This document shows, piece by piece, positions 72 through 60,885 of a stretch of DNA of 61,438 nucleotides. The stretch's first letter is position 1. Each line of letters begins with the position of its first letter. Position numbers and translations under genes: made by a program. Under the pieces are notes generated by a model that was given only the letters and a program-made list of their open reading frames with translations, had not been told where the DNA came from and ran no database searches. The stretch lies in IMG/VR virus record IMGVR_UViG_3300033994_001868, positions 1 to 61,438 of that record; one strand, written 5' to 3'. This DNA is from a virus.

Positions 72-1577
72 ATGAAATCGTTAAATTTAGTATCAGAGTC
101 ATTAGTTAGTCGTATATTAGGTGAAGAAACTCAACCTGAAACCAAATTTTTTATTAACGAAATGAAAACCATAGGTATTGATAAATTACCATATGGTTAC
201 GCATCATTAAGAAGATTTATTGACCCTGAAACAATGAAGTTTCATTATCAGAAACATTACAAAGGGTATGTTAAAAAATTAAATTCCGCTCTTCGTAAAA
301 AAGATTATGGTGATGTTGAATTGGAGAATATTGTTAAACAAATTTCAAAGTATAATACAACAATAAGAAATAATGCAGGTGGAGCATTTAACCACGCATT
401 ATTTTGGAAGATGTTATCACCCACACCACAAAAACCAAGTGGTGAGGTATTTGAAAAGATTGTTAAACAATTTGGAACATATCGCAACTTCAAAACTAAA
501 TTTGAAGAAATTTCAAGAAAAAGATTTGGTTCGGGGTGGTGTTGGTTAGTGTTAACCGATACAGGTAGATTAAAAGTAATGTCTACTTCAAATCAGGATA
601 ATCCACTTATGAATATAATAAACAAGGGTGGTTTTCCGTTGTTAGGTTTAGATTTATGGGAACACGCTTATTATTTAAAATACCAAAACAAAAGAGACGA
701 ATATATTGAAAATTTTTGGGACGCAATTAATTGGGAATTTGTTAACGAGTTATACAAATCAAAAACTGAAAAGAAATTGAACGAGTCAACTTCACAAAAA
801 AAACTTTTATACGAAAACGTATCTGATTATTCAGATATTTTTAGTAACAACAAAAATGTTCTTTGGACTTATAGAAGATGTATTGACAATACGTTGAAAA
901 GAGTTTTATCTGATAAATGGAGTGAAAACAATCAATACTCTGAAGGTTCATCTTCAGGTATCTACGACTTGGAACAACCAGGTCGTTCAGTAATTAATAA
1001 ATTAAACACAAATTATATTGGGTTTAAAATTTTAGTTGATGATTTAAACGCAGTACTTACAAAACTAAATAAACCCACATTAAATTTTATTGGGGTAACA
1101 CCTTCACAACAAGTAGAAGAAATAAATAAATTTTGTTCTTATTTGGAGTTTTTTGGTGAAAGAATTTTTAAAGGGTCTAAAACTCTTGATAAGATTATGA
1201 AACTTTTAAATAGAACACATGACAAAGGTGGTCAACTTGAGGAGTATGTTGCAAAAAAAATCAATCAAGAATTTGGTGAAGGAACTGCTATTGTAGTAGG
1301 TAGTCTTGGCTCAAAAGAAGATTTTGCGGGTACTGATTTAACAGTGAATTTTGATAACAAAATACAAAATGCTCAAGTAAAACCAATTTTAAGTATGGAA
1401 GTAATTGAGGGTTTCTATCATATTAAAATCAGAGGGTTTGTTAAAAAATTTAATACCGACTTATTAATTTTTTCAAATATTAACAAAGAAGTTTATATTT
1501 TTAAAAACAAAACGGTAGCTTTTAGTTCAAGCATGTTTAAAATTCCGGCACAAGATTTAATTTATACTCTGAATTGA
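72..1577 (+). CDS. Mn/Fe superoxide dismutase fused to an Mrr-like nuclease domain
   Basis: Residues about 30-228 are a Mn/Fe superoxide dismutase. The four metal ligands are visible: H58 (FHYQKHY), H108 (NHALFW), D194 and H198 (LDLWEHAYY). STSNQD and the Gly before the second His resemble the manganese type. Residues about 370-500 look like a PD-(D/E)xK nuclease of Mrr style, with acidic residues at E390/E391, D422 and a Q435-V-K437 motif. The first 18 residues form a basic amphipathic leader ending LGE, which fits a T4-type capsid-targeting and prohead-protease site; another such site, LNE, lies near residue 238 between the domains. Normal SODs are about 200 residues, so roughly 270 residues are extra. 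Dismutation of superoxide is well supported by the residues; nuclease activity and packaging are inference. Confidence 0.85.
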   Translation: MKSLNLVSESLVSRILGEETQPETKFFINEMKTIGIDKLPYGYASLRRFIDPETMKFHYQKHYKGYVKKLNSALRKKDYGDVELENIVKQISKYNTTIRNNAGGAFNHALFWKMLSPTPQKPSGEVFEKIVKQFGTYRNFKTKFEEISRKRFGSGWCWLVLTDTGRLKVMSTSNQDNPLMNIINKGGFPLLGLDLWEHAYYLKYQNKRDEYIENFWDAINWEFVNELYKSKTEKKLNESTSQKKLLYENVSDYSDIFSNNKNVLWTYRRCIDNTLKRVLSDKWSENNQYSEGSSSGIYDLEQPGRSVINKLNTNYIGFKILVDDLNAVLTKLNKPTLNFIGVTPSQQVEEINKFCSYLEFFGERIFKGSKTLDKIMKLLNRTHDKGGQLEEYVAKKINQEFGEGTAIVVGSLGSKEDFAGTDLTVNFDNKIQNAQVKPILSMEVIEGFYHIKIRGFVKKFNTDLLIFSNINKEVYIFKNKTVAFSSSMFKIPAQDLIYTLN

Positions 1578-1585
1578 TATTTATA
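1578..1585 (+). promoter_or_regulatory. Putative late promoter element TATTTATA
   Basis: TATTTATA ends 15 nt before the ATG at 1601 and overlaps the region just after the stop of the SOD fusion gene. It is one of ten or so copies placed 13-19 nt before a start codon. Confidence 0.45.
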
Positions 1586-1600
1586 TAAAAATATCACTTC

Positions 1601-2731
1601 ATGAATACAATAATCGCAGAACCTTACAGAAGTCAACTATATACAAAAGTTAGACACGTATTAGGAGCCCCAATTCGTTCAATTGAATTAGAAGATGAAC
1701 AAATGGACTCAATCTTAGAATTTGCAATTGGGGATTATTCCCAATATGTACAAGATTGGTTAATTGAATCACAATGGACTTCATTATACAATTTAAATTT
1801 AGATACTCAATCTTTATCAAGGGCATTTGTTACAAAAAGTTTAGATTACGAAAATAGATACGCTCAAGCATACTCTAAAATAGTGGGATTACAATCTAAC
1901 CCACTTGGTGATTGGGAACTTAAAAAAGATTATATCACATTAGTACCCAATCAACAGATTTATGAAATACCCGCAGGTCGTGAAATTAATGAACTATTAT
2001 GGTTTACACCAGCAACTCTAAATAATATTTTATTTGACCCATTCAGTTTTGGTGGTTTGGGGGGAGGACTTGGTGGTGGAACTGGTTTTGCTCAGATGGG
2101 TTATATGTCAGGAAGTTATTTTATGATGCCAGCATTTGATATGTTATTAAGAATGCAAGAAATTAATATTCAGAGAAGAATTATTGGTGGTGATTTAACT
2201 TATAGAATTACAGGATTACCTAATGGTAAAAAAGCAATTCATTTAATGCAAACACCTGGTGGTAAATTTGATTTTGGTAATTCATCATTAAGAAATCACC
2301 AAGTTTGGTATTGGTATTACGATGTTGGCCCTGAGGATAGAGATGCTTGTTTAGCTGCTAACCCTGATATTATTAAACTTCCCTCAGATGTTCCTTTCAA
2401 CTCAATTTCATGGGCAGATTTAAACGAACCGGCTCAACAATGGGTTAGAAGATATTTTGTTGCGGGATGTAAAGAAACATTATCAAAAGTAAGAGGAAAG
2501 TATTCAGGTAATTTAAAAACACCTGACTCAGAATTAACTATGGATTATGCTACTTTAGCAACTGAGGGTAAAGATGAAAAATTAAAATTAATTGAAGAAT
2601 TAATCGGAGCAGACGGAAGATTGACAAGATTACGTCCTGAAAAAATAATGGAGAGAGAAGCGTTAATTGCTGAAAATCTAAACAAACAAATGAAGTTTAG
2701 AGCGTTCCCAAGAAATCTGTATGTAATATAA
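1601..2731 (+). CDS. Virion structural protein, possibly T4-like neck (gp13-type)
   Basis: A 376-residue soluble protein with no signal peptide or membrane segment. The N-terminal third is helical and aromatic-rich. A glycine-rich loop at about residues 150-165 is followed by a beta-rich part containing ITGLPNGKK and WYWYYD, and the C-terminus is a charged helix ending in a basic NKQMKFRAFP segment. Its size and layout recall neck or head-completion proteins of T4-like phages, but that is a tentative reading, not a motif match. It lies between the SOD fusion and a small gene on the same strand, with its own TATTTATA element. Confidence 0.45.
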   Translation: MNTIIAEPYRSQLYTKVRHVLGAPIRSIELEDEQMDSILEFAIGDYSQYVQDWLIESQWTSLYNLNLDTQSLSRAFVTKSLDYENRYAQAYSKIVGLQSNPLGDWELKKDYITLVPNQQIYEIPAGREINELLWFTPATLNNILFDPFSFGGLGGGLGGGTGFAQMGYMSGSYFMMPAFDMLLRMQEINIQRRIIGGDLTYRITGLPNGKKAIHLMQTPGGKFDFGNSSLRNHQVWYWYYDVGPEDRDACLAANPDIIKLPSDVPFNSISWADLNEPAQQWVRRYFVAGCKETLSKVRGKYSGNLKTPDSELTMDYATLATEGKDEKLKLIEELIGADGRLTRLRPEKIMEREALIAENLNKQMKFRAFPRNLYVI

Positions 2732-2735
2732 TTTT

Positions 2736-3071: not shown

Positions 3072-3108
3072 AAAAAAGGAATATGTATTTTTAACATATT
3101 CCTTTTTT
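3072..3108. terminator. Bidirectional terminator between convergent genes
   Basis: A perfect inverted repeat (AAGGAATATGT, 7-nt loop, ACATATTCCTT) is flanked by A and T runs. It can stop transcripts from both the 2736-3071 gene and the oppositely oriented DNA polymerase gene ending at 3111. Confidence 0.85.
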
Positions 3109-3110
3109 CA

Positions 3111-10245: not shown

Positions 10246-10539
10246 ATGGCATCAAAAGTCCCAATAGATTTAAACCAACCAGATAACGCTTTAAGTGCAA
10301 TTGCTGAAAAAGTTAGAAAAGATTTGGTTACAAGAAATGATTACAAATCAAACGCAAATGAATATGGGGTAACTAATCCTGACGCAATCTCTGATGGAGA
10401 TGGTAAAGGAAGAGGAACAGGAGTATTCTTAGACATATTTAATGGAGGTACATCAACTGACCAAGTTACTAAAGTTGATAACATCAAACTAAACAAATAT
10501 AGTTCAAAAAAACCTTATAACTCACCTTCGACAGAATGA
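10246..10539 (+). CDS. Small hydrophilic protein, unknown
   Basis: A 97-residue protein beginning 4 nt after the previous stop. It is rich in Asn, Asp and Gly, and the central SDGDGKGRGTGVFLDIFNGG segment looks like a flexible turn region. No catalytic or metal-binding motif is clear. Its stop overlaps the next start (10536). Position in a run of virion-type genes suggests a structural or assembly role, which is inference. Confidence 0.55.
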   Translation: MASKVPIDLNQPDNALSAIAEKVRKDLVTRNDYKSNANEYGVTNPDAISDGDGKGRGTGVFLDIFNGGTSTDQVTKVDNIKLNKYSSKKPYNSPSTE

Positions 10540-10928
10540 AGCTTTACAACGTCATAAAACAACTTATTTTTGAAGCAAGTAGTGAAGAAATTACTAATGC
10601 AATTAAGAATAGGCATGTTGCAACAATTTACTATGACGGGGAAGATAATGGAGGTAAAGGACTTCGTGTTATTGAACCTTTTTGTTACGGAACATCAAAA
10701 AGAGGTAACAAAGTAATAAGAGCGTGGGAGAGAGAAGGGGCGTCACACACCGCAACCATAGGTGACCAACCATTACCAGGTTGGAGATTATTTAGGGTTG
10801 ATAGGATTGGAAGCTTCTCGTATGACCCACGTGAAAAATTTGATATAATAAGACCAAGTTATAATCCTGAAGATAAAGGAATGGTCGGATTAAAAGTATG
10901 TACAAAATTTGAATTAGAAAATGAATGA
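10536..10928 (+). CDS. WYL-domain protein with capsid-targeting-like leader
   Basis: Residues about 20-100 fit a WYL domain: ATIYYDGE, a G(K)GLRVIEPFCYG strand pair, KVIRAWERE, then WRLFRVDRIGSF, which is the typical end of the fold. WYL domains sense nucleic acid or nucleotide ligands in bacterial regulators of defence and DNA repair. Here it is alone, with no HTH or nuclease partner. The first 13 residues (MKLYNVIKQLIFE) are an amphipathic leader ending I-F-E, like a T4 prohead-protease site. The start overlaps the previous stop by 4 nt. WYL is a confident fold call; delivery in the capsid is inference. Confidence 0.75.
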   Translation: MKLYNVIKQLIFEASSEEITNAIKNRHVATIYYDGEDNGGKGLRVIEPFCYGTSKRGNKVIRAWEREGASHTATIGDQPLPGWRLFRVDRIGSFSYDPREKFDIIRPSYNPEDKGMVGLKVCTKFELENE

Positions 10929-35355: not shown

Positions 35356-36852
35356 ATGTCAATCCATCGTTCATATTTTAGTAAAAACAATACCATACTT
35401 TCAAACAGTTATGTTAATACTGGTAAATCTCCGTACACACAACTTTATTTTGGTTCATCAGACACGGTAATTGCGTCACCAGGATTTAGTAGATTTATAT
35501 TTGATTTAAATTTATCAGGTCTTACCCAAAAAATTCAAGACGGAGTCATATCTACAGGATGTACTGGATTTTCAGGAATAACTCATACATTAAGAATGAC
35601 AAATACATCGTCATTTGATAAAGAAGGGTTATCTAATGAATATACCAGTCAAGGAAGATTAAGAGCAACTTCATTTGATTTAATTTTATTTAGAATTCCA
35701 CTGACATCAGGTAATACAGGAACTGCTCAATTATGGGATGAAGGTGTTGGTTACGATTATTACGATGTCCAAAGAACATTAAATTCTGGGAATGGTTTAT
35801 TATCACCAATTGCATTACCTCAAGATAAATCATATTCACAAAGACCATCTAATTGGTTTCAAACAACAACATTAAGTGGATGGAGTACAAATGGAATATA
35901 TAATAATACAACGGGAGGTAATGTTGATTATTCAGATTTAATCATCGTTGATACCCAACACTTTGAATTTGGTAATGAGGATATTGAATTTGACATGACA
36001 AATGAAATTAATCAATATCTAACAGGTTCAACATCAGGATTTACAGGATGGGGAATTGCTTATTTACCTCAATTAGAAAATTTAACAGGATTAACTGAAA
36101 ACTATTCTGTTGGATTTTTTACAAGACATACTCAAACATTTTACGAACCGTTTTTAGAAACTTCGTATAATGATTTAATATTAGATAATAGAAATTCTTT
36201 TTATTCACATAACAATAATCGTCTTTATTTATATTCTTATATTGGCGGGGTTCCAACAAGTTTAGATAATCTACCTATTGTAACTCTTGAGAATAATCAG
36301 GGTAATGTTGTTGGGACATACACAGGTTGTCAAATAACACAAGGTATTTATCAAATAACAACAAGTGGAATAACTGTAACAACACCATGTATGTTTACGG
36401 ATACTTGGTCTAATTTAGTTTATGACGGTATTTCATTACCTAATGTGGTTAATGATTTAACTGTATTACCTTATCAAGGGTATTTTACATTAGGAACACA
36501 AAGTAGAGACCCTGAATTATTTGGTTTTGATTTTTACGGTATTAAACAAGATGAAAAAATACTTAATACTGATGTTAGAAAAGTTGGTGTGATTATTAAA
36601 AAGGCATACACATCAAATCAAGTATTAACCCCTGTCACAGCATATTATAGAATATATGTTAACGAGGGAACTACTGAGGTACAAGTTCAAGATTGGACTC
36701 AAATTAATAGAGCTTCTAATGAATACTATTTTATATTTGATACAAAAGATAAAATACCAAATGAATATAATGTTGATATTAAAGTACTAACATCAGGAGA
36801 AGTAGATACTTATAAAAAAACACTAACATTCCAAATAGTTAATAAGAAATGA
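35356..36852 (+). CDS. Beta-rich virion protein, fibre/baseplate-associated candidate
   Basis: A 498-residue protein rich in Thr, Ser, Gly, Asn and Tyr with almost no charged helices, typical of surface-exposed beta domains. Recurrent TSGxTG-type turns (STGCTGFSG, LTGSTSGFTGWG) recall the style of the 974-residue fibre-like protein at 5987-8911, which also uses such turns. The last 100 residues (VGVIIKKAYTSNQVLTPVTAYYRIYV) look like an Ig-like or jelly-roll domain. Receptor contact is possible but unproven. Confidence 0.55.
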   Translation: MSIHRSYFSKNNTILSNSYVNTGKSPYTQLYFGSSDTVIASPGFSRFIFDLNLSGLTQKIQDGVISTGCTGFSGITHTLRMTNTSSFDKEGLSNEYTSQGRLRATSFDLILFRIPLTSGNTGTAQLWDEGVGYDYYDVQRTLNSGNGLLSPIALPQDKSYSQRPSNWFQTTTLSGWSTNGIYNNTTGGNVDYSDLIIVDTQHFEFGNEDIEFDMTNEINQYLTGSTSGFTGWGIAYLPQLENLTGLTENYSVGFFTRHTQTFYEPFLETSYNDLILDNRNSFYSHNNNRLYLYSYIGGVPTSLDNLPIVTLENNQGNVVGTYTGCQITQGIYQITTSGITVTTPCMFTDTWSNLVYDGISLPNVVNDLTVLPYQGYFTLGTQSRDPELFGFDFYGIKQDEKILNTDVRKVGVIIKKAYTSNQVLTPVTAYYRIYVNEGTTEVQVQDWTQINRASNEYYFIFDTKDKIPNEYNVDIKVLTSGEVDTYKKTLTFQIVNKK

Positions 36853-37367
36853 AAAAAGTAGTATTAAAAGAAAACGAATATATTAAATTATTAAAATTTG
36901 TATTATCTGAAGCTTTGTCACCAGGTGAAGATAAAATTGACATGATTTTAGATAAAATTAGTCAATCAGGAATGGAATCAATCACACCTGAAGAAAGAGA
37001 AACTCTTGAAAAATTTACTAAAGGTATTTCAATAGAAGATGAACCGTCATCTAAAGAAGATTTTATGACTAAAGCTGGTGGTTTTTGGTCTTTTGAATTC
37101 CCAGGTATGCCGTCATTTAAATTTAGATATGAGTCAACTGAAGATACTGAAGATGAAAAAATACATACAGGATATCTAACAGTTGATGATAGTGATTACT
37201 ATGGTGAAATTTATTGTGATACTGAGGGTAATTTTCAAACTTGTATGTTTGAAAATACAACTGAAGGAACTAACGTATTTGAAGATTATGAAGGTTTAGA
37301 ACACGATATTGAAGTGTTTTTAGATGTAGTCTGTAATGACCTAAAAGAAGATGATATGATTGCGTAA
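36849..37367 (+). CDS. Acidic protein with capsid-targeting-like leader
   Basis: A 172-residue protein. The first 20 residues (MKKVVLKENEYIKLLKFVLS, then E) form a basic amphipathic leader ending L-S-E, fitting a prohead-protease site. The rest is strongly acidic, with a beta-rich middle (SFEFPGMPSFKFRYESTED, YLTVDDSDYYGEIYCD) and a helical acidic end. No enzyme motif is visible. It overlaps the previous stop (ATGA). It may be an internal head protein; the fold is unknown. Confidence 0.6.
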   Translation: MKKVVLKENEYIKLLKFVLSEALSPGEDKIDMILDKISQSGMESITPEERETLEKFTKGISIEDEPSSKEDFMTKAGGFWSFEFPGMPSFKFRYESTEDTEDEKIHTGYLTVDDSDYYGEIYCDTEGNFQTCMFENTTEGTNVFEDYEGLEHDIEVFLDVVCNDLKEDDMIA

Positions 37368-37368: not shown

Positions 37369-37812
37369 ATGAAAAATTTAAATAACATAATTAAAAAAGT
37401 TCTTAAAGAGGAAAATCAAAGATATATGTTTTTCTCTAACTTAGAACAAATGAAACGCCAATGTGAAATACTACTTGGTAAAGATAAACAAATGATTGAA
37501 TCTATTTTAGATAATGGACACGATTGGGCTCAAGACCATATCGCTGAAGCTAAAAATAATATGGACCAAGTATTTGATTTTATCATGAATGAAATTGAAG
37601 GTGATGATTTTAGTAGTGAGGACGCAGTTGATGTAATGTATGAAGGTCGTAAAAAAGCTGGTACTAAATTATGTGCTCGTGGTGTTGCGTCTGCAAAATC
37701 AAAATATGACGTGTACCCAAGTGCTTATGCGAATGGCCATGCTGTTCAAGTATGTAAGGGCAAAATCAAAGGTCTTGACGGAAAAAAACATTGTTCAGGT
37801 GCGTATTGTTAA
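37369..37812 (+). CDS. Leader-bearing protein with YPSAYANG C-terminal domain
   Basis: A 147-residue protein. The ATG at 37369 is preferred to an overlapping TTG at 37360. Residues 1-14 (MKNLNNIIKKVLKE) are a capsid-targeting-like leader. The C-terminal 55 residues, RKKAGTKLCARGVASAKSK followed by YDVYPSAYANGHAVQVCKGK, are a small Cys-containing module that I recall from other phage and viral proteins, where the Y-P-S-A-Y-A-N-G core recurs. Its function is not known to me. Similar leaders occur on the next genes. Confidence 0.65.
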   Translation: MKNLNNIIKKVLKEENQRYMFFSNLEQMKRQCEILLGKDKQMIESILDNGHDWAQDHIAEAKNNMDQVFDFIMNEIEGDDFSSEDAVDVMYEGRKKAGTKLCARGVASAKSKYDVYPSAYANGHAVQVCKGKIKGLDGKKHCSGAYC

Positions 37813-38285: not shown

Positions 38286-38531
38286 ATGTCAAAGTTAGAT
38301 ATCCAAATTAAAAAAGTATTAAAAGAAATGTCAGAAGAACCAGAATACGGAAGACTTGATAGAGGTTTAGTTCAAGATGTTATTGATAGAATATTATCTG
38401 ATGAAACAGGTGAATATAAAAATGCATTAAGAGAATTAAATTCTGAATATAATACAGGACAATACTCAAGACCTGAAAGAACTTATGAGCCACCTAAACC
38501 AGGTATTAGAGTTAGCAAAAGTATTTATTAA
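38286..38531 (+). CDS. Small protein with capsid-targeting-like leader
   Basis: An 81-residue protein. The leader MSKLDIQIKKVLKE shares the IKKVLKE segment with the 37369 gene and ends L-K-E. The rest is polar and acidic with RPERTYEPPKPG near the end, probably unfolded. Its stop TAA overlaps the stop of the convergent gene in a TTAA palindrome. Candidate internal head peptide. Confidence 0.6.
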   Translation: MSKLDIQIKKVLKEMSEEPEYGRLDRGLVQDVIDRILSDETGEYKNALRELNSEYNTGQYSRPERTYEPPKPGIRVSKSIY

Positions 38532-39478
38532 TCTAAAGCTTTCCTGATTAAAGATATTAAGACCGATTCGTTGGTCTTTTTCTTTTTAGGTTTGTATGAT
38601 GTCATAACAGGTTTTTGACCCTTACCTGTTTGAGTATCTTTTTTTTCAGCCTTTCTTTTTTGTTGACAAGCCGATTGTTTTTGTGAATCAGACATTTTAG
38701 CAGCAACTCCTACCGCTCTACATTTAGGATAACCCTTTGTATCACCCTCAGGTCTACCACATGGTGGATGTTTTCCATCTTTTTTACTACAGATATTAAC
38801 CCAAGGCCCCTTAGGTTGTTTACTACCTTTTGGTTTTTTCTTTGTACCAAACCAAACTCCTAAATCTTCTTTTATAGTATGAACATCGTGTGTTGGAATC
38901 TCATAACCACTATCTTTATGTTTTTCCCAAATACCGACAGTTTTTTTAATATTATTTTTAAGATTTTTTTTCTTAGCTTTATTTGTTGTTTGATGGTTAC
39001 TGTCATCAGTAAATGGTCCTAATTCTTGTTTTCTCCATTTTTTTAAACCTATTTCAATAGGACCTGAATACTCACCAGCACTTACAGAACTATTAGTACC
39101 CTCTTTTATTTTTTTATTATCAAAAACTTTTTTAAGTAGTTTTGTGTTAACAGGGTTATCATTCAAATTACTACCATCTTCATCATTCTGAATAGGATGT
39201 TTTTTGTCTGACTTTGAAATTGCGACCGACATTTCTTCTTTTCTTTTAATACCCTTAGTATCAATATTACCATCAAGTGAATCAACATATACTTCAGCAT
39301 TATCATAACCATTTAATTGTTCAGTAAAGGGCTCTAAAATATTCTTATCCCACAACTTTAATCCAGGTCTTAATGGGGCTCTATAACTACCCGCATCACC
39401 TGTCGAAGTAGATTCAACAATATATTCGTTATACTCTTTGAATTTTTTTAATATTTCTAATATAACGTTACTTTTCAT
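38528..39478 (-). CDS. Internally duplicated protein with leader and Cys motif
   Basis: A 316-residue basic protein. Residues 1-22 form a leader ending I-V-E. Residues 27-54 (GDAGSYRAPLRPGLKLW, then EPFTE) and 134-157 (AGEYSGPIEIGLKKW, then GPFTD) are an internal duplication, the second copy also preceded by a helix (TKLLKKVFDNKKIKE). Residues 225-285 carry a Cys-Gly motif: PWVNICSKKDGKHPPCGR, YPKCRAVGVAAKM, then ACQQKRKAEKKD. This module recurs, as I recall, in phage and algal-virus proteins; its function is unknown to me. Possibly an internal head protein. Confidence 0.6.
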   Translation of the reverse strand: MKSNVILEILKKFKEYNEYIVESTSTGDAGSYRAPLRPGLKLWDKNILEPFTEQLNGYDNAEVYVDSLDGNIDTKGIKRKEEMSVAISKSDKKHPIQNDEDGSNLNDNPVNTKLLKKVFDNKKIKEGTNSSVSAGEYSGPIEIGLKKWRKQELGPFTDDSNHQTTNKAKKKNLKNNIKKTVGIWEKHKDSGYEIPTHDVHTIKEDLGVWFGTKKKPKGSKQPKGPWVNICSKKDGKHPPCGRPEGDTKGYPKCRAVGVAAKMSDSQKQSACQQKRKAEKKDTQTGKGQKPVMTSYKPKKKKTNESVLISLIRKALD

Positions 39479-39820: not shown

Positions 39821-41671
39821 TTATCTTAATTCATTCAAATCGAATGTACGAACACCATCAACGATGATACGTCCATAGAAACGGTTATTAACCATCTTCT
39901 TAGCGTAACGTGTCATAATACCCTTGATAGGAGTAAAGTTGAATGGGTTATACATTGTTGGAGTTAATTGTAATGGTACGTATGGAGCGTAGATATATCC
40001 AGTATCCAATAACGAAGTACCTTTGTGACCAATCAACACAGTGTTTGGTGGGAAGTATGGGTCACGGTATACTTGGTAACGACCACTTAATGTACCAACT
40101 CTCTCGATACCCATGTTGAATTGGTCCTGCTCAGGAGCCGCGTTTGATACGTGGAAGTATTCCAAGTCATCAAAGATAGCACTGATTTCAGAAGATACAA
40201 CAATCCAGTTAGCTCCACCTCTTAAAGTAGACTTATGGATTTGAGCTGAAATTTGGTTGATTGCAGTAATCAACGTTTGATTCCAGTCCTTTTGAGTGTA
40301 AGGAGTTGATTGGTTGTTCAGACGCTTCCATCCGTTGTAATCCCAACGTAATGTCCAAGCTGCACCTTTACGTAAGTCACGTAAAATTTCACGGTCAATT
40401 TCAGCTGCCACTTGCTCAGATAATAAAGCTGTTAATTCAGCTTCAGCATCGATGTTGTGGAACGCTGCAACGTCTTGAGCAAGTTCTGGAGACCATTGTG
40501 CTCTTAACTTTCTTTCAGTTACAGAAACTGTTACTGATTGAAGGTCGAAAGAAACTTCACCAATTTTGTCTTCAAATTCTAACTCTTGGTAACGCTTCCA
40601 ATATGCAGTAACTGCAGTGTTAGTTGTAACACCCGTTAAAGTAGTTGTGAAAGTAGTTCCAGTGTAACCATCAGGAGTAGATGCTCCACAAGAGATACAT
40701 GCTGGTGTTTGTAAATCAACTTCTAAGTAGATAACACCATCAGCACTACATACATCATAGAACGAACCTCCATTTCCAGGAGTCGCTCCACCTGGCCATG
40801 TTGTAGTTTTGTTAGTACCATATTCAACAATACCTTTACCGTATTTTTGTGTAACAACACGGAATAAAAGTGGTGTAGAAGTAGTAACATTACCACCAGA
40901 TGCGTTAATTCTTGCTGCTAATGCGGAAGTTGGTAATAAAGTTAAATCAGAAAGGAATGTTTCAGTATCCATTTCTTGTCCATCAGGGCCAATTAACTTA
41001 CCGTCACCTACTGATGTGAAACCAGACATTACTAAAAGTAATTTTCTGTATTCACCTGAACCATATCCAGATACTACTAATGAACCGTTTGACCAAACTA
41101 CTTGGTTAGTTGCACCAGTAACCCAATACCAACCACCTTTTGAATAATCAAAAAGACCTGATGGGTTTAAACCTGGTTCATTTCCTTCATAGAATAAATC
41201 ATAAAGGTTCTTTGGATACGCAGTTGAATCAGTGTAACCAGCATTTGGGTCACCAGGATAGTTTCCAGGAGAACCTACAGGTGCTCTGTGTCCAGCTTCT
41301 CCTGAAGCTCCTTGTGTTGGAGTTGCTGCAGAATAACCTTGAATTTGAGGTACAAAGTAGAACAATTTACCGATTGGTAAGTTCATAGCTTGTACAGATA
41401 CGATTTCGTTAGCTAATAATTTAGAGAACACACGTCTGATGATAGGGAATACCACAGTTTCGAATGAACCTGAATCAGCAGTTGAAGCCGCTTCGTTAAT
41501 TAAGAATGATGCTTGGTTTTCATACAACTGAGCAACGTTTTCTTTTAGGTGGCCTCTAAGACCTTCAAGGAACCCTAATTTGTCCCATTTGTTTATAGTG
41601 TCTTCTTTGATAACTTTCAAGTGCTTAAGACCGATGTTACCTACTAATCCACTTTCTAATAATGCTCCCAT
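39821..41671 (-). CDS. gp23: Major capsid protein (T4 gp23-like)
   Basis: A 616-residue HK97-fold capsid protein. The N-terminal 60 residues are the delta-domain; LYENQASFLINE followed by AASTADSGSF is the expected prohead-protease cut after E60, matching E65 in T4. VSVQAMNLPIGKLFYF starts the mature core, and the C-terminal half (WTLRWDYNGWKRLN, NWIVVSSEISAIFDDLEYF, RDPYFPPNTVLIGHKG, MTRYAKKMVNNRFYGRI) is clearly gp23-like. It is about 95 residues longer than T4 gp23, mainly in a Gly/Thr-rich region at about 110-340 that probably forms an enlarged insertion domain. Its leader lacks TATTTAT, so it is likely read through from the scaffold gene 31 bp upstream. Confidence 0.95.
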   Translation of the reverse strand: MGALLESGLVGNIGLKHLKVIKEDTINKWDKLGFLEGLRGHLKENVAQLYENQASFLINEAASTADSGSFETVVFPIIRRVFSKLLANEIVSVQAMNLPIGKLFYFVPQIQGYSAATPTQGASGEAGHRAPVGSPGNYPGDPNAGYTDSTAYPKNLYDLFYEGNEPGLNPSGLFDYSKGGWYWVTGATNQVVWSNGSLVVSGYGSGEYRKLLLVMSGFTSVGDGKLIGPDGQEMDTETFLSDLTLLPTSALAARINASGGNVTTSTPLLFRVVTQKYGKGIVEYGTNKTTTWPGGATPGNGGSFYDVCSADGVIYLEVDLQTPACISCGASTPDGYTGTTFTTTLTGVTTNTAVTAYWKRYQELEFEDKIGEVSFDLQSVTVSVTERKLRAQWSPELAQDVAAFHNIDAEAELTALLSEQVAAEIDREILRDLRKGAAWTLRWDYNGWKRLNNQSTPYTQKDWNQTLITAINQISAQIHKSTLRGGANWIVVSSEISAIFDDLEYFHVSNAAPEQDQFNMGIERVGTLSGRYQVYRDPYFPPNTVLIGHKGTSLLDTGYIYAPYVPLQLTPTMYNPFNFTPIKGIMTRYAKKMVNNRFYGRIIVDGVRTFDLNELR

Positions 41672-43393: not shown

Positions 43394-44113
43394 TTATTTT
43401 TTTAAATAATCGGAAAGTCTTCCCATTAAATCAAGCGATTTGTTAACTGTTCTTGCGGCTTTCATTTCATTTTCTTCTTGTAGGTTCTCTTCAAACGCAA
43501 ATCTTCCATCAGGTTCAGTAAATAAATAAGCTCCAGGTGTTGATGGTGAAGATACCAAGTCAAAACAAATTAATTCAAAATCATCTTGAACTTCATTTTG
43601 GTCACCTACCTTTTTTAATGAACCTACCCCTCTTGATGATATACCTAACGTTACACCTAATCTTAATAGGTTTGCAGCTTGGTCACCCTTTGTTGATACA
43701 ATACCTCTTTCATGAAACCCTGGTGAAGTCAGAAGTAATAGTTTACCTAATAGAACATTACCATCCCACCACATCTCTGTAATCATGTGTGATACTCTAT
43801 CTAAATCTATCAATGAAGACTCAGGGTGGTTAAGTTCAGATAAGGATGTTTTCTTACCTATATAATTTTTAATATAGTTATCCGATTCTCTCTTTAGAAT
43901 TCTTTCGGGATATATTCTACCATTTCTATTTGGTGTATTATATTTTTGTAGAACGGCATAAAATTCAAATGGTTTTGAATAATCTTTAAAATCCCTACTT
44001 TCTTGTAAGAATGTTTGATTATGTTTTTCTGTTGGGGAAACATATCCCGCATCCATCTCAATTAAAATACCCTTTCCTGTCTCTCTTGGACCTAATATTT
44101 TATAATTTTGCAT
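43394..44113 (-). CDS. gp21: Prohead protease (T4 gp21-like, peptidase U9)
   Basis: A 239-residue serine protease that matures the prohead by cutting after (L/I)-x-E. NRNGRIYPERIL, SLSELNHPESSLIDLDRVSHMI (catalytic His in NHP), LGISSRGVGSL (catalytic Ser) and CFDLVSSPSTPGA are the herpes/T4 protease-family signatures. Length fits T4 gp21 (212). Near its C-terminus, ENLQEENEMK may allow self-processing. Its presence gives the L/I-x-E leaders elsewhere in the window a plausible cutter. Confidence 0.93.
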   Translation of the reverse strand: MQNYKILGPRETGKGILIEMDAGYVSPTEKHNQTFLQESRDFKDYSKPFEFYAVLQKYNTPNRNGRIYPERILKRESDNYIKNYIGKKTSLSELNHPESSLIDLDRVSHMITEMWWDGNVLLGKLLLLTSPGFHERGIVSTKGDQAANLLRLGVTLGISSRGVGSLKKVGDQNEVQDDFELICFDLVSSPSTPGAYLFTEPDGRFAFEENLQEENEMKAARTVNKSLDLMGRLSDYLKK

Positions 44114-44671: not shown

Positions 44672-44857
44672 ATGTTAATTATCCCTGTCAGAAATAACGA
44701 GGTGGAAAAAGCTTTAAAAATTTTTAAACAAAAAGTAGTTAAAACTCAACTTGTAAAAAAATTACAGGAGGGAAAATACTACAAAAAAAAATCTGACACA
44801 AAACGTCAGATTTTAAAAAATGCAATTTATAAAAATTTAAAAAATACTGAATTATAA
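44672..44857 (+). CDS. rpsU: Ribosomal protein bS21 homologue
   Basis: A 61-residue basic protein with the bS21 layout: LIIPVRNNEVEKALKIFKQK, VVKTQLVKKLQEGKYYKKKS, then KRQILKNAIYKNLKN. The N-terminal V-R-x-x-E-x-x-x-A-L-K-x-F-K pattern and basic tail match bacterial bS21, most like the Bacteroidetes form. bS21 sits at the 30S platform next to the anti-Shine-Dalgarno end of 16S rRNA and could replace the host copy to favour phage messages. The ATG at 44672 is preferred to a long upstream extension, which would overlap the 44601 gene antisense. It is the only plus-strand gene inside the head cassette. Confidence 0.88.
   Translation: MLIIPVRNNEVEKALKIFKQKVVKTQLVKKLQEGKYYKKKSDTKRQILKNAIYKNLKNTEL
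44783..44814 (-). terminator. Minus-strand terminator embedded in the bS21 coding region
   Basis: A perfect 10-bp stem (AAAATCTGAC / GTCAGATTTT, 7-nt loop) is followed on the minus strand by a run of nine T. It lies about 38-70 nt past the stop of the 44852-45562 gene and is antisense within bS21. Confidence 0.8.
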
Positions 44858-45562
44858 ATTTTGAGTTAAGCTCAATAACTTAATATATTCTTTTTTAGAT
44901 GGTTTAGAGTTTGTAACTCTTTCTTTTGTTTCAACTAAAACATTTTTAAGTTCTTCATCAGATTCTGAAATTAATATGTCAATTTTTTGAACCGCATTTT
45001 CTTTTAATTCGTCAAATTTACTTTTTAAATTTTCTTCTTTTGAAGTTAAAATTTCTTTAATTGAATTTCTTTCCGATTCAGTTAAATTTTCTAAATATTT
45101 TTCAGCAGTTTTATTAGCAACTTTTAACATTGAACTAATTGGAACTTTGGGTGTTTTATTTTCAACAATTGGTTTAGTTTTAGTTAAACTTTCAACAATT
45201 TTCTTTTTGGCAATTGATTTTTTTTCAGGTTTTATCAAATCACCATACAATAAATCATCAATAGTTTCGTATTTGTTTTCTAAAACAATATCTTTTGTCC
45301 AACTTTTAATAAATTTATTTGTTGATTCTGAAAGATTTAGATTTTTAAATTCTGAAACCATATCCTCAACCAAGTAATTGGAAGTTTCTTTATCTAAACC
45401 TTTGTTTTCATTTAGGTTGTCATAAATTGACATCATTTTAACAAAATCTTTATTTTTCAATAATTTTTTGTTAAAAAGATACATATCAGTTTTAAGAGCA
45501 TCATTTTTGAATGACTCTACCAACTTATTTTCTACTAGTGTTTTAATTATTCCGAATCTCAT
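44852..45562 (-). CDS. Prohead core-like protein with many protease sites
   Basis: A 236-residue Lys/Glu-rich helical protein between portal and protease, where T4 has the small core proteins gp67 and gp68. It contains at least six V/L/I-x-E type sites spread along the chain: TLVEN and KLVES at the start, YLVED, IVLEN, KIVES, PIVEN and VLVET. This is the pattern expected of a scaffold protein cut into peptides by the prohead protease. No other domain is seen. Its 3' end overlaps that of bS21 by 6 nt. Confidence 0.65.
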   Translation of the reverse strand: MRFGIIKTLVENKLVESFKNDALKTDMYLFNKKLLKNKDFVKMMSIYDNLNENKGLDKETSNYLVEDMVSEFKNLNLSESTNKFIKSWTKDIVLENKYETIDDLLYGDLIKPEKKSIAKKKIVESLTKTKPIVENKTPKVPISSMLKVANKTAEKYLENLTESERNSIKEILTSKEENLKSKFDELKENAVQKIDILISESDEELKNVLVETKERVTNSKPSKKEYIKLLSLTQNL

Positions 45563-49481: not shown

Positions 49482-50804
49482 TTAGTTGATACCTAATCCT
49501 TTTAAGAAGTCATCAAAATCCTCATCATCATCATCATCATCATCGTCGTCGTCGTCATCATCCTCATATTTTTTTATAGTATCTTCATACTCATATCCTT
49601 TTAGTTCTTCAACAATTTCATCAACCATATCTTTCACCATTTTCTTTCCTTTTGGTGAACCTGATAAAATTTCACGAGCCATTGCAAAAAATTCGTTTGG
49701 AGTAAGTTCGGCAAACTTAACAAGGAAATACTGTTGTAAGTTTCTCTTATCGTCATCAAATAACTCATCAGGATAAGACTCACGGAACTTTTGCCAAATA
49801 ACTGGACCTAATCTCATATCCCAAATTTCACCAACAACAGTATCTTGTGAGTTAATTACTGCCTCTTGTCTTGTCTTATCTTTTGGTAATCCGTATGTAC
49901 CAGCAATTTCCATAACACCTTTAGCAAGTTCATGAATAAGAATTGGTAAGTTAACACCACGAGCCTTTACTGTCGGTGGGTCAGTCTTAGCATCTAACTC
50001 AGACATACCATATGTTGATTCTCCACCACCCGCCATACCTTGAACCATTGAGTCGGGCATTAACCAATAAAGTGAATCGGCAAATGACATAAACACACCA
50101 TACAAATTTAATAACCTTGGGTTAATGGCATTTAATTCTCTGTTTAACAATTCAAACATATAAGAAGATTGTTTAGCAGCTCCTTGGATAAGTGAGTTAA
50201 TAAATCGTCTTTTAGCCTTTTCTAAGTCAAATTTTTCAAATGAGTCCATGAAATCTTCAAGTTGTTCTTGTTCTTCTTCAGAACCAAACATATTTTCAAT
50301 TTCTTCTTCACTTGGTTCTTCACCTTTAGGAGATAACTTACTTGAGTCAATATCATTTGGTTGAACCAACTTTACATCATATTGTAACGCTCCTTCAGGA
50401 ATTGCAAATTCTTTTTGAACAACCTCAATCGCAAGTTCTTCCAAGTATTCTCTGTTTTCAGATTCTATCTGAGCAATCTCTTGCATAGCATTCATTACCA
50501 TCATTTGAAGTTGCATCATAGCATTTTGTGATGTAACATCTTGAAGGCCAGTATATCTTTTTAATCTGTTGATAACCTCTTTAAATCTCTGTGATGCAAT
50601 AAGTTGCTCAAAGTTAGATGGTTTATCCGGTCCTTCAGGTGTAATTTCAGGAAATGCTTTACTACCTGAATGAGGAGTTTCACCTTTTTCAAATTTAGAT
50701 TGAATATCAGGAGCCATTCTTTCAGGTCCTTCGTATCCGATAGGTGCCTCATTAATTCGACTAACCAATCTTTTTACTAATTGTTCTTTTTTCATCTTAC
50801 TCAC
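49482..50804 (-). CDS. Head-associated protein with leader and poly-Asp tail
   Basis: A 440-residue, mostly helical protein. The leader MSKMKKEQLVKRLVSRINE fits a capsid-targeting signal ending I-N-E. The middle contains KRRFINSLIQGAAKQSSYMF, LPILIHELAKGVMEIAGTYG (H-E-x-x-K, not a full HExxH zinc site) and VGEIWDMRLGPVIWQKFRE. The end is a tail of about 13 Asp followed by EDFDDFLKGLGIN, an acidic tail with a hydrophobic tip. Function unknown; position before the terminase suggests head or packaging roles. It overlaps the next upstream gene by 8 nt. Confidence 0.6.
   Translation of the reverse strand: MSKMKKEQLVKRLVSRINEAPIGYEGPERMAPDIQSKFEKGETPHSGSKAFPEITPEGPDKPSNFEQLIASQRFKEVINRLKRYTGLQDVTSQNAMMQLQMMVMNAMQEIAQIESENREYLEELAIEVVQKEFAIPEGALQYDVKLVQPNDIDSSKLSPKGEEPSEEEIENMFGSEEEQEQLEDFMDSFEKFDLEKAKRRFINSLIQGAAKQSSYMFELLNRELNAINPRLLNLYGVFMSFADSLYWLMPDSMVQGMAGGGESTYGMSELDAKTDPPTVKARGVNLPILIHELAKGVMEIAGTYGLPKDKTRQEAVINSQDTVVGEIWDMRLGPVIWQKFRESYPDELFDDDKRNLQQYFLVKFAELTPNEFFAMAREILSGSPKGKKMVKDMVDEIVEELKGYEYEDTIKKYEDDDDDDDDDDDDDEDFDDFLKGLGIN
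49521..49563 (-). repeat. CAT/CGT triplet repeat encoding poly-Asp
   Basis: A run of CAT then CGT triplets on the plus strand (GAT/GAC Asp codons on the minus strand) forms a microsatellite that could change length by slippage. Confidence 0.8.
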
Positions 50805-54601: not shown

Positions 54602-54610
54602 AACTTTTTT

Positions 54611-56753: not shown

Positions 56754-56768
56754 ACCCCCTTTTTTTTA
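56739..56768. terminator. Bidirectional terminator after the ClpC-like gene
   Basis: AAAAAGGGGG, AATAAA, CCCCCTTTTTTT form a strong stem that includes the ClpC-like stop codon and also faces the end of the convergent peptidase gene. Confidence 0.88.
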
Positions 56769-56771
56769 TAA

Positions 56772-57590: not shown

Positions 57591-57617
57591 AGCTCATAAA
57601 GATAAGCTATTTTTTTA

Positions 57618-58697: not shown

Positions 58698-58711
58698 TAA
58701 ACTTTTTTTTA

Positions 58712-58718
58712 ATAAATA
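58712..58718 (-). promoter_or_regulatory. Putative late promoter element TATTTAT
   Basis: TATTTAT on the minus strand, 14 nt before the ATG at 58697, next to the divergent tmRNA promoter. Confidence 0.45.
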
Positions 58719-58719
58719 C

Positions 58720-58750
58720 TTGGTAAAAGAAGAATATATTTATATCTTTG
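58720..58750 (+). promoter_or_regulatory. Bacteroidetes-type promoter for tmRNA
   Basis: TTGG at 58720-58723 and TATCTTTG at 58743-58750, spaced by 19 nt, fit TTTG-N19-TAnnTTTG with one weak base in the -33 box. Transcription would start near 58757, about 16 nt before the mature tmRNA 5' end. Confidence 0.6.
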
Positions 58751-58772
58751 TAACATAGTTCTTTGAGTATAT

Positions 58773-59167
58773 GGGGATGTTTTTGGATTTGACAGGTATG
58801 AATCTGTCATAAAACGCACGTCGGGGCTAAACTAACCCTGTAAAACTGGTTTAAAACACAAACGGCAACACAATTGCAAAACTTTCTACACTCGGTTTAA
58901 TCCGTACTGAAGAAGTAACTGTAGCCTAATCTAAGATTAGTATACAACGGGGTCGGTGAGCATATAACCTTGCAACAGAAGCTTGTACCGTGGTGTGGTT
59001 TCTATCCGAAAAGGAACAAAGTGGAGGATTAGTTCTCAGTAAACCGAACCACTATAAAATAAGGGAATTGTGAAGTTTCGGATTGTTTAGAAAAACAATG
59101 ACCTAAACGTGTAGTGTTTTATGGTCGACATATTTGGACCGGGGTTCGAATCCCCGCATCTCCACCA
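58773..59167 (+). ncRNA. ssrA: tmRNA (transfer-messenger RNA)
   Basis: A complete one-piece tmRNA of 395 nt. The 5' GGGGATG pairs with 3' CATCTCC, giving an alanine-type acceptor with a G:U at the third pair, followed by A and an encoded CCA. A T-arm (CGGGG TTCGAAT CCCCG) and the conserved 5' GGATTTGACAGG segment are present. The likely tag frame runs 58864-58926 with stop TAA at 58927 beside a CTAATC-TAA-GATTAG hairpin. It reads 21 residues, GNTIAKLSTLG then LIRTEEVTVA. Its end, VTVA, differs from the common LAA. tmRNA rescues stalled ribosomes and tags the product for proteolysis. A strong terminator follows. Confidence 0.95.
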
Positions 59168-59170
59168 ATT

Positions 59171-59198
59171 AAAAAGGGACTTTTTAGTCCCTTTTTTT
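59171..59198. terminator. Terminator of tmRNA and of the hydrolase gene
   Basis: AAAAAGGGAC, TTTTTA and GTCCCTTTTTTT form a stem-loop 3 nt after the tmRNA CCA end. The symmetric A/T flanks also serve the convergent gene ending at 59197. Confidence 0.88.
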
Positions 59199-60885
59199 AT
59201 TTAATCATTTTTGATTTAATTTTTTGAATATCTTCTAAAATATTTTTTTTCTTTTGTTCAGATTCAAATTGAGGTAATAAATCACCAATTTTATCTAAGA
59301 TATCATCAACACTATATCCAAAAATTTCAAATCCGTCACCAGTATCTTTAACATCTTTTTTATCTTGGATTTTTGACACTAACTCTTTTTGACTTTCTTT
59401 ATCTCCGGGTTTAGCGTCTACAAAAGTTCCTAACCCAACATAGTCTAAAAATTTTTCTAGTTTATTTGGTTCTTTAGTATTATTTTTTTCAGTTTCAATA
59501 TCACCACCCCTATTATCAAACATAGAATAGTCATAATCAGATTCACTATTACCCCAATTTTTTAAAATAAATTGTTTTATTGTTTGACCTTCAGTTTTTG
59601 CTTTATGTCCCGGATTTATTTCACCATGGCCGTAAATCCTATCAGGACTATACCCCAAAGATTTAACCAATTTAAGTGCAGAAACCGCCTGTACAGGTAA
59701 AATGTCATCATCATTCATACCAACAACTTCAACACCTTCAGTGTTAGAATTATTAATTCCTTTTGGAGCCGATGGGAAATCACTTGAATTTAAAATATGA
59801 GCCCCTCTACTTCCATCAGGTAATGTTCGAACAATAGACCCATCTCTTTCTATAACCCATTGAACACCTAATCCACCTTTTCTACTATTAAGAATGCCAA
59901 CAACTTTTTCAGCATCACCCCTACCAGCAGTATGATGGATAACAAAAAAATTTCTTGATTTAAGTTTTTCATTTTTCCTTCCATAAGTTGACATCCCTGA
60001 AATATCGCTAATCTGAAGAGTTTCTAAAATATTTTTTTTCTTTTGTTCAGATTCAAATTGAGGTATAATACTTTTTACGTTATCTAATATATCGTCTAAT
60101 TTATATCCAAATATTTCAAAACCTTCATCATTATCTTTCACATCATCATCTGAAAAAAGTTCTTTTGCCTTATCCACCAGTCCTTTTTGACTTTCTTTAT
60201 TACCTGCCGTCGCGTCACTCAATTCACCTAACCCAACATAATCTAAAAACTTATCAAGTTTAGACGGTTCTTTTTTATCGATAATTTCATTATTTGGAAC
60301 TTCAGGAAATTCAAAACTATCTAAACTTGACACATTTATTGAATTACAAAACTTTGGTGTAAATCTACTTTCATCTCTCCCATTCTCTGACCAAGATAGG
60401 TGAAAATGATTACCTGTTGAATTTCTTGTTCCGTGTCTGTATTCATCAATAAATGTAAATCCTGGAATACTTTTTCTTGCGGCACATAGTAACGTTGAAA
60501 TTTTATCCAATATTTCATTATCGGTTTCTTTGATGTCACCTTGTTCATTTTTCCAAAAAACTACGTCATTAGCGTTGCCTTTATTATGTCTACTGGTACC
60601 TGATATTCTTCGATGAAAACTATCCCTACCCGAACCAAATTGTATGTTTAAATCAGGCATTTCTTTTTTAAACGCTGAACCTATTTTTTGTAATATACTA
60701 GAAAACTCAGGTGTAATATCACCAACTTCATCTAATGTTGGTTTAACTTTATACCCTAAACTTTGTAAATGAGCTCTAGCGTTTTTAGCGTTAAAAAAAG
60801 TTGATTTATCAATCGCATCCTCAAATATATATTCTAACTTACGTAGTTCTTTTAATGATTGTTCGTGTAATTGTTTTTTATTCAT
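59197..60885 (-). CDS. Two-domain peptidoglycan hydrolase (M15-like peptidase plus amidase_2)
   Basis: A 562-residue protein. Residues 55-180 resemble an M15/VanY-type peptidase: SGTSRHNKGNANDVVF (H100, D107) and STGNHFHLSW (H160, H162). Residues 305-445 are an amidase_2 (PGRP) domain: FFVIHHTAGRGD, GVQWVIERDG and IYGHGEINPGHKAKTEG. Two copies of a roughly 85-residue linker module (205-290 and 471-556; KxxKFLDYVGLG, GFEIFGY, PQFESEQKKKNIL) flank the amidase. The N-terminus to YIFE is leader-like. It could be a lysin or a virion-carried hydrolase. TATTTATA lies 13 nt before its ATG. Confidence 0.85.
   Translation of the reverse strand: MNKKQLHEQSLKELRKLEYIFEDAIDKSTFFNAKNARAHLQSLGYKVKPTLDEVGDITPEFSSILQKIGSAFKKEMPDLNIQFGSGRDSFHRRISGTSRHNKGNANDVVFWKNEQGDIKETDNEILDKISTLLCAARKSIPGFTFIDEYRHGTRNSTGNHFHLSWSENGRDESRFTPKFCNSINVSSLDSFEFPEVPNNEIIDKKEPSKLDKFLDYVGLGELSDATAGNKESQKGLVDKAKELFSDDDVKDNDEGFEIFGYKLDDILDNVKSIIPQFESEQKKKNILETLQISDISGMSTYGRKNEKLKSRNFFVIHHTAGRGDAEKVVGILNSRKGGLGVQWVIERDGSIVRTLPDGSRGAHILNSSDFPSAPKGINNSNTEGVEVVGMNDDDILPVQAVSALKLVKSLGYSPDRIYGHGEINPGHKAKTEGQTIKQFILKNWGNSESDYDYSMFDNRGGDIETEKNNTKEPNKLEKFLDYVGLGTFVDAKPGDKESQKELVSKIQDKKDVKDTGDGFEIFGYSVDDILDKIGDLLPQFESEQKKKNILEDIQKIKSKMIK
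59233..59276 (-). repeat. 44-bp exact direct repeat, copy 1
   Basis: Identical over 44 bp to 60022-60065. It encodes the PQFESEQKKKNIL part of the second linker module of the hydrolase. Confidence 0.9.
60022..60065 (-). repeat. 44-bp exact direct repeat, copy 2
   Basis: Identical to 59233-59276. The copies are offset by 789 bp, a multiple of three, so recombination between them would remove the amidase domain in frame. Confidence 0.9.

What the first reader, a model, noticed from the sequence alone, without database searches (positions are those of the whole stretch)
72..60885. A suite of proteins sharing N-terminal L/I-x-E leaders: a possible capsid-cargo system
At least nine proteins start with 12-30 residue basic amphipathic segments ending in (L/I/V)-x-E: LGE (72), IFE (10536), LSE (36849), LKE (37369, 38286), IVE (39478), LVE (45562), INE (50804), IFE (60885). 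The phage encodes a gp21-type protease, which in T4 cuts at (L/I)-x-E, and the capsid protein has the same type of site (INE at 60). In T4 this is the route by which internal proteins are packed and injected. Here the cargo would include a SOD-nuclease, a WYL protein, Cys-motif proteins and a peptidoglycan hydrolase, a far broader load than T4's.
Basis: partly seen in the sequence, partly recalled or inferred. Interest (0 to 1): 0.88.

Follow-up and report, generated by a model that had tools for sequence, protein, structure and literature searches.

The report
Phage cargo tags cut by prohead protease
In a freshwater T4-like phage and its relatives, many unrelated proteins begin with the same kind of short, apparently removable tag, which most likely sends them into the new virus head so that they can be injected into the next host cell; this would extend a trick known from phage T4 to a far larger set of proteins, but no virus particles were examined.

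Summary
Bare (L/I/V)-x-E is uninformative: 13/24 genes of the sugar/enzyme block, 24/42 elsewhere. A stricter rule (basic, amphipathic, ending in [LIVF]xE) gives 9/66 window genes against 1.4 expected. Of the nine listed proteins, five (36849, 37369, 38528, 49482, SOD) are well supported by relatives; 10536 and 38286 are compatible; 60885 has one homologue; 45562 is probably a head-core protein.

In relatives the leader is a reusable module, MKK(V/I)(I/V)RLTESDLxxIVKRVIxE|, on about 140 body families without detectable similarity to each other. Conservation stops at the Glu (P1 Glu 97%, P3 I/L/V 97%; neither column was in the search model). The capsid protein has the matching site LINE|A. All 13 tested large leader-bearing contigs with a capsid gene have the gp21-type protease. 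Leaders swap between orthologues; LxE sites also lie at domain borders.

Best explanation: a T4-like capsid-targeting and release system with much larger cargo. Published S-CREM2 virion proteomics agrees (5/5 T4-type tags detected; rule made post hoc); a held-out S-SCSM1 test was inconclusive. Packaging, cleavage and injection are inferred. New variant of a known kind.

The parts
43394..44113 (-). gp21-type prohead protease (predicted cutter of the leaders)
   Evidence: PHROG 207 head maturation protease, E 1.7e-43
39821..41671 (-). gp23-type major capsid protein; propeptide residues 1-60 end in LINE|A
   Evidence: PHROG 138, E 3.8e-66; site in a highly conserved prosequence of 92 capsid proteins; P1 = residue 60
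36849..36911 (+). leader (21 aa, LSE|A) of the 36849-37367 protein; divergent type-1 leader
   Evidence: 21 distinct N-termini; in 20 a [LIV]xE lies shortly before the shared body, several relatives with LTESQL/LTESDL leaders; the 21st has a leader-like segment at residues 68-82. The site column counted for this family is the earlier KE at residue 8
37369..37410 (+). leader (14 aa, LKE|E) of the 37369-37812 Cys-motif protein
   Evidence: 31 distinct N-termini, site 0.97, upstream identity 0.37; leader replaced by MKKIKLTESELTNIVKRVLEE in G003
38286..38327 (+). leader (14 aa, LKE|M) of the 38286-38531 protein; weaker case
   Evidence: site in 8/8 distinct N-termini but the family is too uniform (0.78 upstream identity) to be a test
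39413..39478 (-). leader (22 aa, IVE|S) of the 38528-39478 protein
   Evidence: 61 distinct N-termini, site 0.97 with upstream identity 0.12: leaders differ, site kept
38528..39478 (-). multi-unit protein: further sites after residues 126 (IKE|G) and 204 (IKE|DLGVWFG), leader-like helix at the C-terminus
   Evidence: Glu precedes DLxVWFG in 49/49 and [LIV]xE in 42/49 occurrences, 8 of them at a protein start; C-terminal type-1 leader in some relatives
50748..50795 (-). leader (16 aa from the ATG, INE|A) of the 49482-50795 protein next to the terminase gene
   Evidence: 29 distinct N-termini, site 0.90, upstream identity 0.23
72..161 (+). leader (30 aa, FINE|M) of the superoxide dismutase protein
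   Evidence: 52 distinct N-termini, site 0.73, upstream identity 0.34; Sod_Fe_N/C
771..815 (+). two (L/I)xE sites (LNE|S, P1 residue 238; LYE|N, P1 residue 248) between the SOD and the nuclease-like domain
   Evidence: conserved in 0.86 and 0.98 of 56 members
816..1574 (+). C-terminal domain of the SOD protein, PD-(D/E)XK nuclease-like
   Evidence: model mean pLDDT 92.4; best PDB match homing endonuclease I-Ssp6803I, E 2.8e-3, then Hjc resolvases at E 0.085 and above; no Pfam family for the window's domain
10536..10574 (+). leader (13 aa, IFE|A) of the WYL-like protein; weaker case
   Evidence: 10/10 distinct N-termini keep [LIV]xE|; family little diverged, 0.78 upstream identity; WYL just below the Pfam cut-off
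60820..60885 (-). leader candidate (22 aa, IFE|D) of the amidase protein 59197-60885
   Evidence: only one homologue besides itself, IFE|E there; Amidase_2 E 1.8e-8
44852..45562 (-). probable head-core protein at the gp67/gp68 position; not counted as cargo
   Evidence: lies between portal and protease; conserved N-terminus without an isolated site

Best explanation
The leaders are removable capsid-targeting propeptides. A basic amphipathic N-terminal helix docks the protein on the assembling prohead core. When the gp21-type protease is activated it cuts after (L/I/V)-x-E, releases the mature protein inside the head, trims the capsid protein at LINE|A, and splits multi-domain precursors (SOD | nuclease-like; repeated basic/Cys units) at sites between domains. 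The packed proteins leave with the DNA at infection. One leader type is reused on more than a hundred unrelated proteins, so acquiring the leader may be enough to make a protein cargo. Shown here by sequence: the leader module, its sharp end at the Glu, its exchangeability, sites at domain borders, co-occurrence with protease and capsid genes. Inferred: docking, cleavage, packaging, injection.
For: An HMM without the site columns finds 236 N-terminal against 17 internal hits, 152 body families (BLAST E 1e-4), P3 and P1 conserved, P2 weakly, information 3.05 bits at P1, 1.49 at P1', about 0.1-0.3 after. Split by type: 140 families with D/E in column 9 have P1 Glu 97% and P3 L/I/V 97%. After dropping seeds and search anchors: 158 hits, 116 families, P1 Glu 87%, P3 I/V/L 87%, both types together. 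T4 experiments put targeting mainly in CTS residues 4 and 7 and processing in 8 and 10, i.e. P3 and P1 (PMC9026906 passages). Leaders change within families while the site stays. DLxVWFG unit preceded by Glu 49/49, [LIV]xE 42/49, at protein start or inside. SOD linker sites 0.98 and 0.86 of 56. Of 17 large leader-bearing contigs tested, the 13 with a capsid gene all have the protease. S-CREM2 virion MS: strict T4-type tag on 5 proteins, all 5 detected; 52 of 219 proteins were detected. Excess over internal segments: 30 vs 6.1, 25 vs 5.5, Mel-JY01 6 vs 0.5; control crAss001 2 vs 1.7.
Against: No virion data for this clade. Held-out S-SCSM1: regex 1/48 virion proteins against 4/239 others, p=0.60; strict 1/48 against 1/239, p=0.31. 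The generic rule does not separate virion from other proteins in S-CREM2 (2/28 vs 4/161, p=0.22). The S-CREM2 regex was written after seeing its N-termini. G005 shows no clear excess (7 vs 4.4, p=0.15). In the family-level control, Glu leads (12 of 78 families) but Lys gives 8 and Val 7, and at least two of the 12 Glu families (the protease itself and 41703) are not leader proteins. 18 of the 152 families have a Q-type start (MKxxITExQ) with P1 Glu in only 38%. P1' is most often Gln in type-1 leaders, Ala in the capsid. Type-1 leaders lack the aromatic 4/7 residues of the T4 CTS. Two of three cellular genomes with a leader-scan match have no protease match.
Confidence: 0.74

Rival explanations
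1. For the conserved proteins encoded around the head genes (38528, 49482, 37369, 36849): they are inner-head, core or vertex proteins that the protease trims during maturation (like T4 gp24, gp67, gp68) and are not delivered. This concerns a subset and does not exclude the best explanation for the rest.
For: They lie near the head genes and are widespread in the clade; T4 gp24 has the same kind of start, MAKINELLRE|STTT.
Against: For the wider set: type-1 leader genes in G001 and G003 also occur in runs away from the head genes; some carry enzyme domains: alpha/beta hydrolase, L,D-transpeptidase with peptidoglycan-binding domain.
Confidence: 0.35
2. Chance and composition: AT-rich, Lys/Glu-rich proteins often show basic helices with LxE near the start.
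For: Bare motif equally common in the sugar/enzyme block, 13/24 against 24/42.
Against: Excess 9 vs 1.4 in the window, 30 vs 6.1 and 25 vs 5.5 in two large genomes; a 20-residue module on about 140 body families; 1 hit in reversed sequences against 75 N-terminal at 10 bits.
Confidence: 0.06
3. The leader is a docking helix for another partner (membrane, RNA polymerase, ribosome, replication compartment), and the Glu is a structural cap, not a cut site.
For: The targeting part differs in sequence from the T4 CTS; no cleavage has been observed in this clade.
Against: Conservation stops at P1/P1'; diverse leaders keep the site (family 38528); same (L/I)xE sites at domain borders and in the capsid protein.
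Confidence: 0.12

Closest known systems
T4 internal proteins IPI-IPIII with the capsid targeting sequence, cut by gp21
   Same: Short N-terminal propeptide on otherwise unrelated proteins, ends in (L/I)xE, same protease and capsid families; T4 ipII/ipIII start MKTYQEFIAE|A.
   Different: Leader about 20 residues with another targeting sequence (RLTESDLxxIVKRVI); tens of candidates in the two largest genomes read against four in T4 (recalled); also C-terminal and inter-domain sites (for T4, C-terminal processing of Alt and expected for gp21 is reported, PMC9026906 passages).
Long propeptides of giant phage SPN3US
   Same: Many inner-head proteins cut by a gp21-related protease (PMC5694885, PMC9026906 passages).
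   Different: In the passages seen those propeptides are mostly about 80-130 residues (one of 20), without one shared short module on over a hundred bodies.
bS21-encoding freshwater phages of Bacteroidetes
   Same: Ribosomal protein S21 gene (Pfam E 8.5e-10) on the opposite strand inside the head module; terminase, portal, protease and capsid genes around it (PMC9723584 passages).
   Different: The passages seen do not concern leaders ('cleav' 0 occurrences in the main text); supplements not seen.
Virion-associated enzymes of T4-like cyanophages (S-CREM2, S-SCSM1)
   Same: Enzymes detected in virions start with T4-like tags: SAM hydrolase MKDFDSFLEE, kinase MKRFDAFLTE, NMNAT MKNFSSFLTE and MKSFLQFLKE.
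   Different: 10-residue T4-like tag, few tagged proteins; the S-CREM2 text does not mention targeting, cleavage or N-termini for the terms searched.

Membership tests
T4-type capsid targeting sequence (CTS) | Short N-terminal propeptide ending in (L/I)xE | tested here: met
   P3 L/I/V and P1 Glu 97% each in 140 type-1 families, neither column in the model; that it is a propeptide is inferred
T4-type capsid targeting sequence (CTS) | Same leader on unrelated proteins | tested here: met
   140 type-1 body families of 152 found
T4-type capsid targeting sequence (CTS) | Phage encodes gp21-type protease and gp23-type capsid protein with a matching site | tested here: met
   Window; 13/17 large leader-bearing contigs have both, 4/17 neither
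T4-type capsid targeting sequence (CTS) | Targeting residues as in IPIII (aromatic Y4 and F7 of MKTYQEFIAE) | tested here: not met
   Type-1 consensus KVIRLTESDLxxIVKRVIxE has no such residues; hence described as working like a CTS, not filed as a member of that sequence family
T4-type capsid targeting sequence (CTS) | Cleavage by gp21 during head maturation | not testable with these tools
   needs virion mass spectrometry or protease assay
T4-type capsid targeting sequence (CTS) | Cargo packaged and injected | not testable with these tools
   indirect only: S-CREM2 5/5, S-SCSM1 inconclusive
bS21-encoding Bacteroidetes phages | bS21 gene on the opposite strand within the terminase-portal-protease-capsid region | tested here: met
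   44672-44857 +, PF01165, between portal and protease genes
bS21-encoding Bacteroidetes phages | Host in Bacteroidetes | not tested
   taken from PMC9723584; nearest named capsid matches include Flavobacterium phage immuto (41.6% identity over 54% of the query)

The most novel reading that the evidence does not exclude
These abundant freshwater phages carry a general import code for their own heads: any protein that gains the 20-residue leader is packed, freed by the capsid protease and injected, giving each phage a large variable set of injected effectors, some made as polyproteins that are cut apart only after packing.
Probability: 0.5. Interest if true: 0.87.

Novelty: new variant of a known kind. 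Interest (0 to 1): 0.72.

Why it matters
If right, the leader gives a sequence-only way to list what uncultured phages inject before any of their genes are expressed. That is where first-line anti-defence and host-takeover proteins should be, and over a hundred families, most of the scanned ones without a Pfam match, would gain a place and a time of action. It also offers a capsid-loading tag other than the T4 one.

Tried and rejected
Bare (L/I/V)xE as criterion: rejected. LGE at residue 18 of the SOD protein: not the conserved site. Sigma factor as cargo: the sigma-domain protein (L296:8466-9044) starts MKIIITESQ, the Q-type start without a conserved downstream site, so it is not claimed. S-CREM1 virion proteome: 14 proteins by mass spectrometry, no list in the passages seen. 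The generic rule failed to separate virion proteins in S-CREM2. Megablast in named phages: no match. Portal search of the 4 contigs without capsid gene: 0/4, but the tool warned that nothing rang anywhere. Paper search for the motif string LTESDL: 0 papers. 'Capsid targeting sequence' is in 15 papers, none of whose titles concerns uncultured or Bacteroidetes phages; subscription journals and preprints are largely not covered.

Full report
What the window is. The 61,438-base window is a virus record of 30% G+C. It holds terminase, portal, gp21-type protease and gp23-type capsid genes and a ribosomal protein S21 gene on the opposite strand within them (44672-44857, Pfam E 8.5e-10). That matches the bS21-encoding freshwater phages of Bacteroidetes (PMC9723584, passages). 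In named phages a 12 kb stretch has no megablast match; all protein matches of protease and capsid protein there are below 60% identity.

Checking the claim in the window. All quoted N-termini exist. The bare motif does not discriminate: 13/24 genes of the sugar/enzyme block and 24/42 others have [LIV]xE in residues 9-32. A stricter rule gives 9/66 against 1.4 expected from internal Met-anchored segments, with one apparent false positive (17560). The same rule, unchanged: G001 30/311 against 6.1, G003 25/398 against 5.5, G005 7/184 against 4.4, Mel-JY01 part 6/43 against 0.5, immuto 10/216 against 3.8, T4 part 3/71 against 0.3 (among them gp24), and crAss001 2/111 against 1.7. In the 97 kb of crAss001 read, no prohead protease is annotated. 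The rule was written after leaders had been seen; the internal segments and crAss001 are the guard.

The leader as a module. In relatives a consistent leader appears on unrelated proteins: MKKVIRLTESDLxxIVKRVIxE. A scan demanding only the first part found 72 N-termini; Glu stood at the expected register in 53. An HMM of the full leader gave 75 N-terminal hits, 6 internal and 1 in reversed sequences at 10 bits. An HMM cut before the site then found 236 N-terminal and 17 internal hits; the 236 fall into 152 body families by BLAST at E 1e-4. Unweighted, Glu is at P1 in 208/236 and L/I/V at P3 in 212/236. Family-weighted, information is 3.05 bits at P1, 1.49 at P1' and 0.1-0.3 beyond. The set is mixed: 140 families have D/E in column 9 (the type-1 leader; P1 Glu 97%, P3 L/I/V 97%), 18 have Q there (the MKxxITExQ start; P1 Glu 38%, P3 46%); a few families hold both. 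Without seeds and anchors, both types together: 158 hits, 116 families, P1 Glu 87%. T4 work assigns processing to CTS residues 8 and 10, i.e. P3 and P1, and targeting mainly to 4 and 7 (PMC9026906, passages).

Families of the window. Orthologues keep the site while the leader changes. Family 38528: 61 distinct N-termini, site in 0.97, mean identity of the ten residues before it 0.12. 49482: 29, 0.90, 0.23. 37369: 31, 0.97, 0.37. SOD: 52, 0.73, 0.34, site FINE|M, FLTE|M and the like. In 36849, 20 of 21 distinct N-termini carry [LIV]xE shortly before the shared body, and the 21st has its leader-like segment further in; in 36849 and 37369 some relatives carry the LTES leader in place of the window's one. 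A control with other residues: of 78 families, Glu passes in 12, Lys in 8, Val in 7, the other residues in 5 or fewer; two of the 12 (protease, 41703) are not leader proteins, and for 36849 the counted column is an earlier Glu. So this test is strong for the top families and modest as a whole.

Sites at domain borders. In the 38528 family the Cys unit DLxVWFG follows Glu in 49/49 cases and [LIV]xE in 42/49; in 8 it starts a separate protein (residues 7-24), in the rest it lies inside. Some relatives have the type-1 leader at the C-terminus or between units. The SOD protein has two sites between its domains, kept in 0.98 and 0.86 of 56 members. Its C-terminal domain, modelled at mean pLDDT 92, matches PD-(D/E)XK endonucleases weakly but consistently (I-Ssp6803I, E 2.8e-3; Hjc, E 0.085 and above).

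Link to the protease. Of 17 large contigs chosen for having the leader (two more, G002 and G003, were already known to have the protease), 13 have the protease and the same 13 have the capsid gene; the other 4 have neither and may be fragments. Among 84,980 cellular genomes the leader scan confirmed 5 loci. Three are in one MAG that also holds a gp21-type protease and terminase-like genes, so they look like phage contigs binned with bacteria. The genomes of the other two have no protease match; one of them (L378) does carry a leader-like start, in the other (L382) the HMM found none.

Cargo. Of 93 cargo representatives (of 152 families), Pfam matched few: peptidoglycan-binding domain 3, DUF6576 2, and single hits including L,D-transpeptidase, lysozyme, sigma-70 and alpha/beta hydrolase. 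An alpha/beta hydrolase domain starts about six residues after its leader (L359), and a peptidoglycan-binding plus L,D-transpeptidase protein follows one (L362). The sigma-70 protein has the Q-type start and is not counted. G001 has 12 type-1, 5 MKxxITExQ and 18 other candidates, G003 14, 7 and 15, G005 2, 0 and 5; some lie in runs such as G003 36.5-40.3 kb. About 4-6 generic hits per genome are expected by chance.

Published virion data. In cyanophage S-CREM2, Table 3 of PMC10665884 (section 18 read) lists 52 virion proteins. A T4-type tag regex hits 7/52 of them and 3/165 others (p=0.002); the strict form from residue 1 hits five proteins, all detected: SAM hydrolase, APH-like kinase, NMNAT and two unknowns. 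Cas9 has a similar tag further in. The regex was written after reading these N-termini, and the rule does not separate there (2/28 against 4/161). On the held-out S-SCSM1 (48 proteins flagged in GenBank; the paper counts 45) the regex gives 1/48 against 4/239 and the strict form 1/48 (NMNAT) against 1/239: inconclusive. These phages use a T4-like tag, not the type-1 leader, so this supports the principle only.

Reading. The most economical account is a T4-like capsid-targeting and release system with a new targeting sequence and much wider use. Packaging, cutting and injection in this clade are inferred. What is new, as far as the searches show, is the leader module, its reuse on over a hundred families, and the sites at domain borders; the principle is known from T4 (PMC9026906, PMC3012670, passages), where CTS-borne proteins of related phages are already described as variable.

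Noticed in passing
window 44672-44857 +: Ribosomal protein S21 gene on the opposite strand within the head module, as in the bS21 phages of PMC9723584.
   Followed up: partly
window 59197-60885 -: The amidase protein contains an M15-like peptidase motif (by eye, recalled) and two copies of a segment ending QFESEQKKKNILE, i.e. further LxE sites that may lie at domain borders.
   Followed up: no
L368:7704-10313 (S-CREM2 gp12): A phage Cas9 protein that published mass spectrometry found in virions carries a T4-like tag ending LRFASFMAE|A.
   Followed up: partly
L378-L381 (MAG contigs): A variant leader with one extra helical turn, MKKVIRLTESDLHRIVKESVKRVxxE; the MAG called Alphaproteobacteria UBA3650 holds gp21-type and terminase-like genes, so phage contigs seem binned as a bacterium.
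   Followed up: partly
G001, G003 (e.g. L241:7074-8117, L262): A second N-terminal motif, MKxxITExQ, on many proteins without a conserved downstream site; function unexplained.
   Followed up: partly
L110, L120, L123, L125, L140: A third repeated N-terminus, MKxLFLINEEEKDRILNLHE|(S/N)ATKRQYL, on several proteins of 235-500 residues.
   Followed up: no
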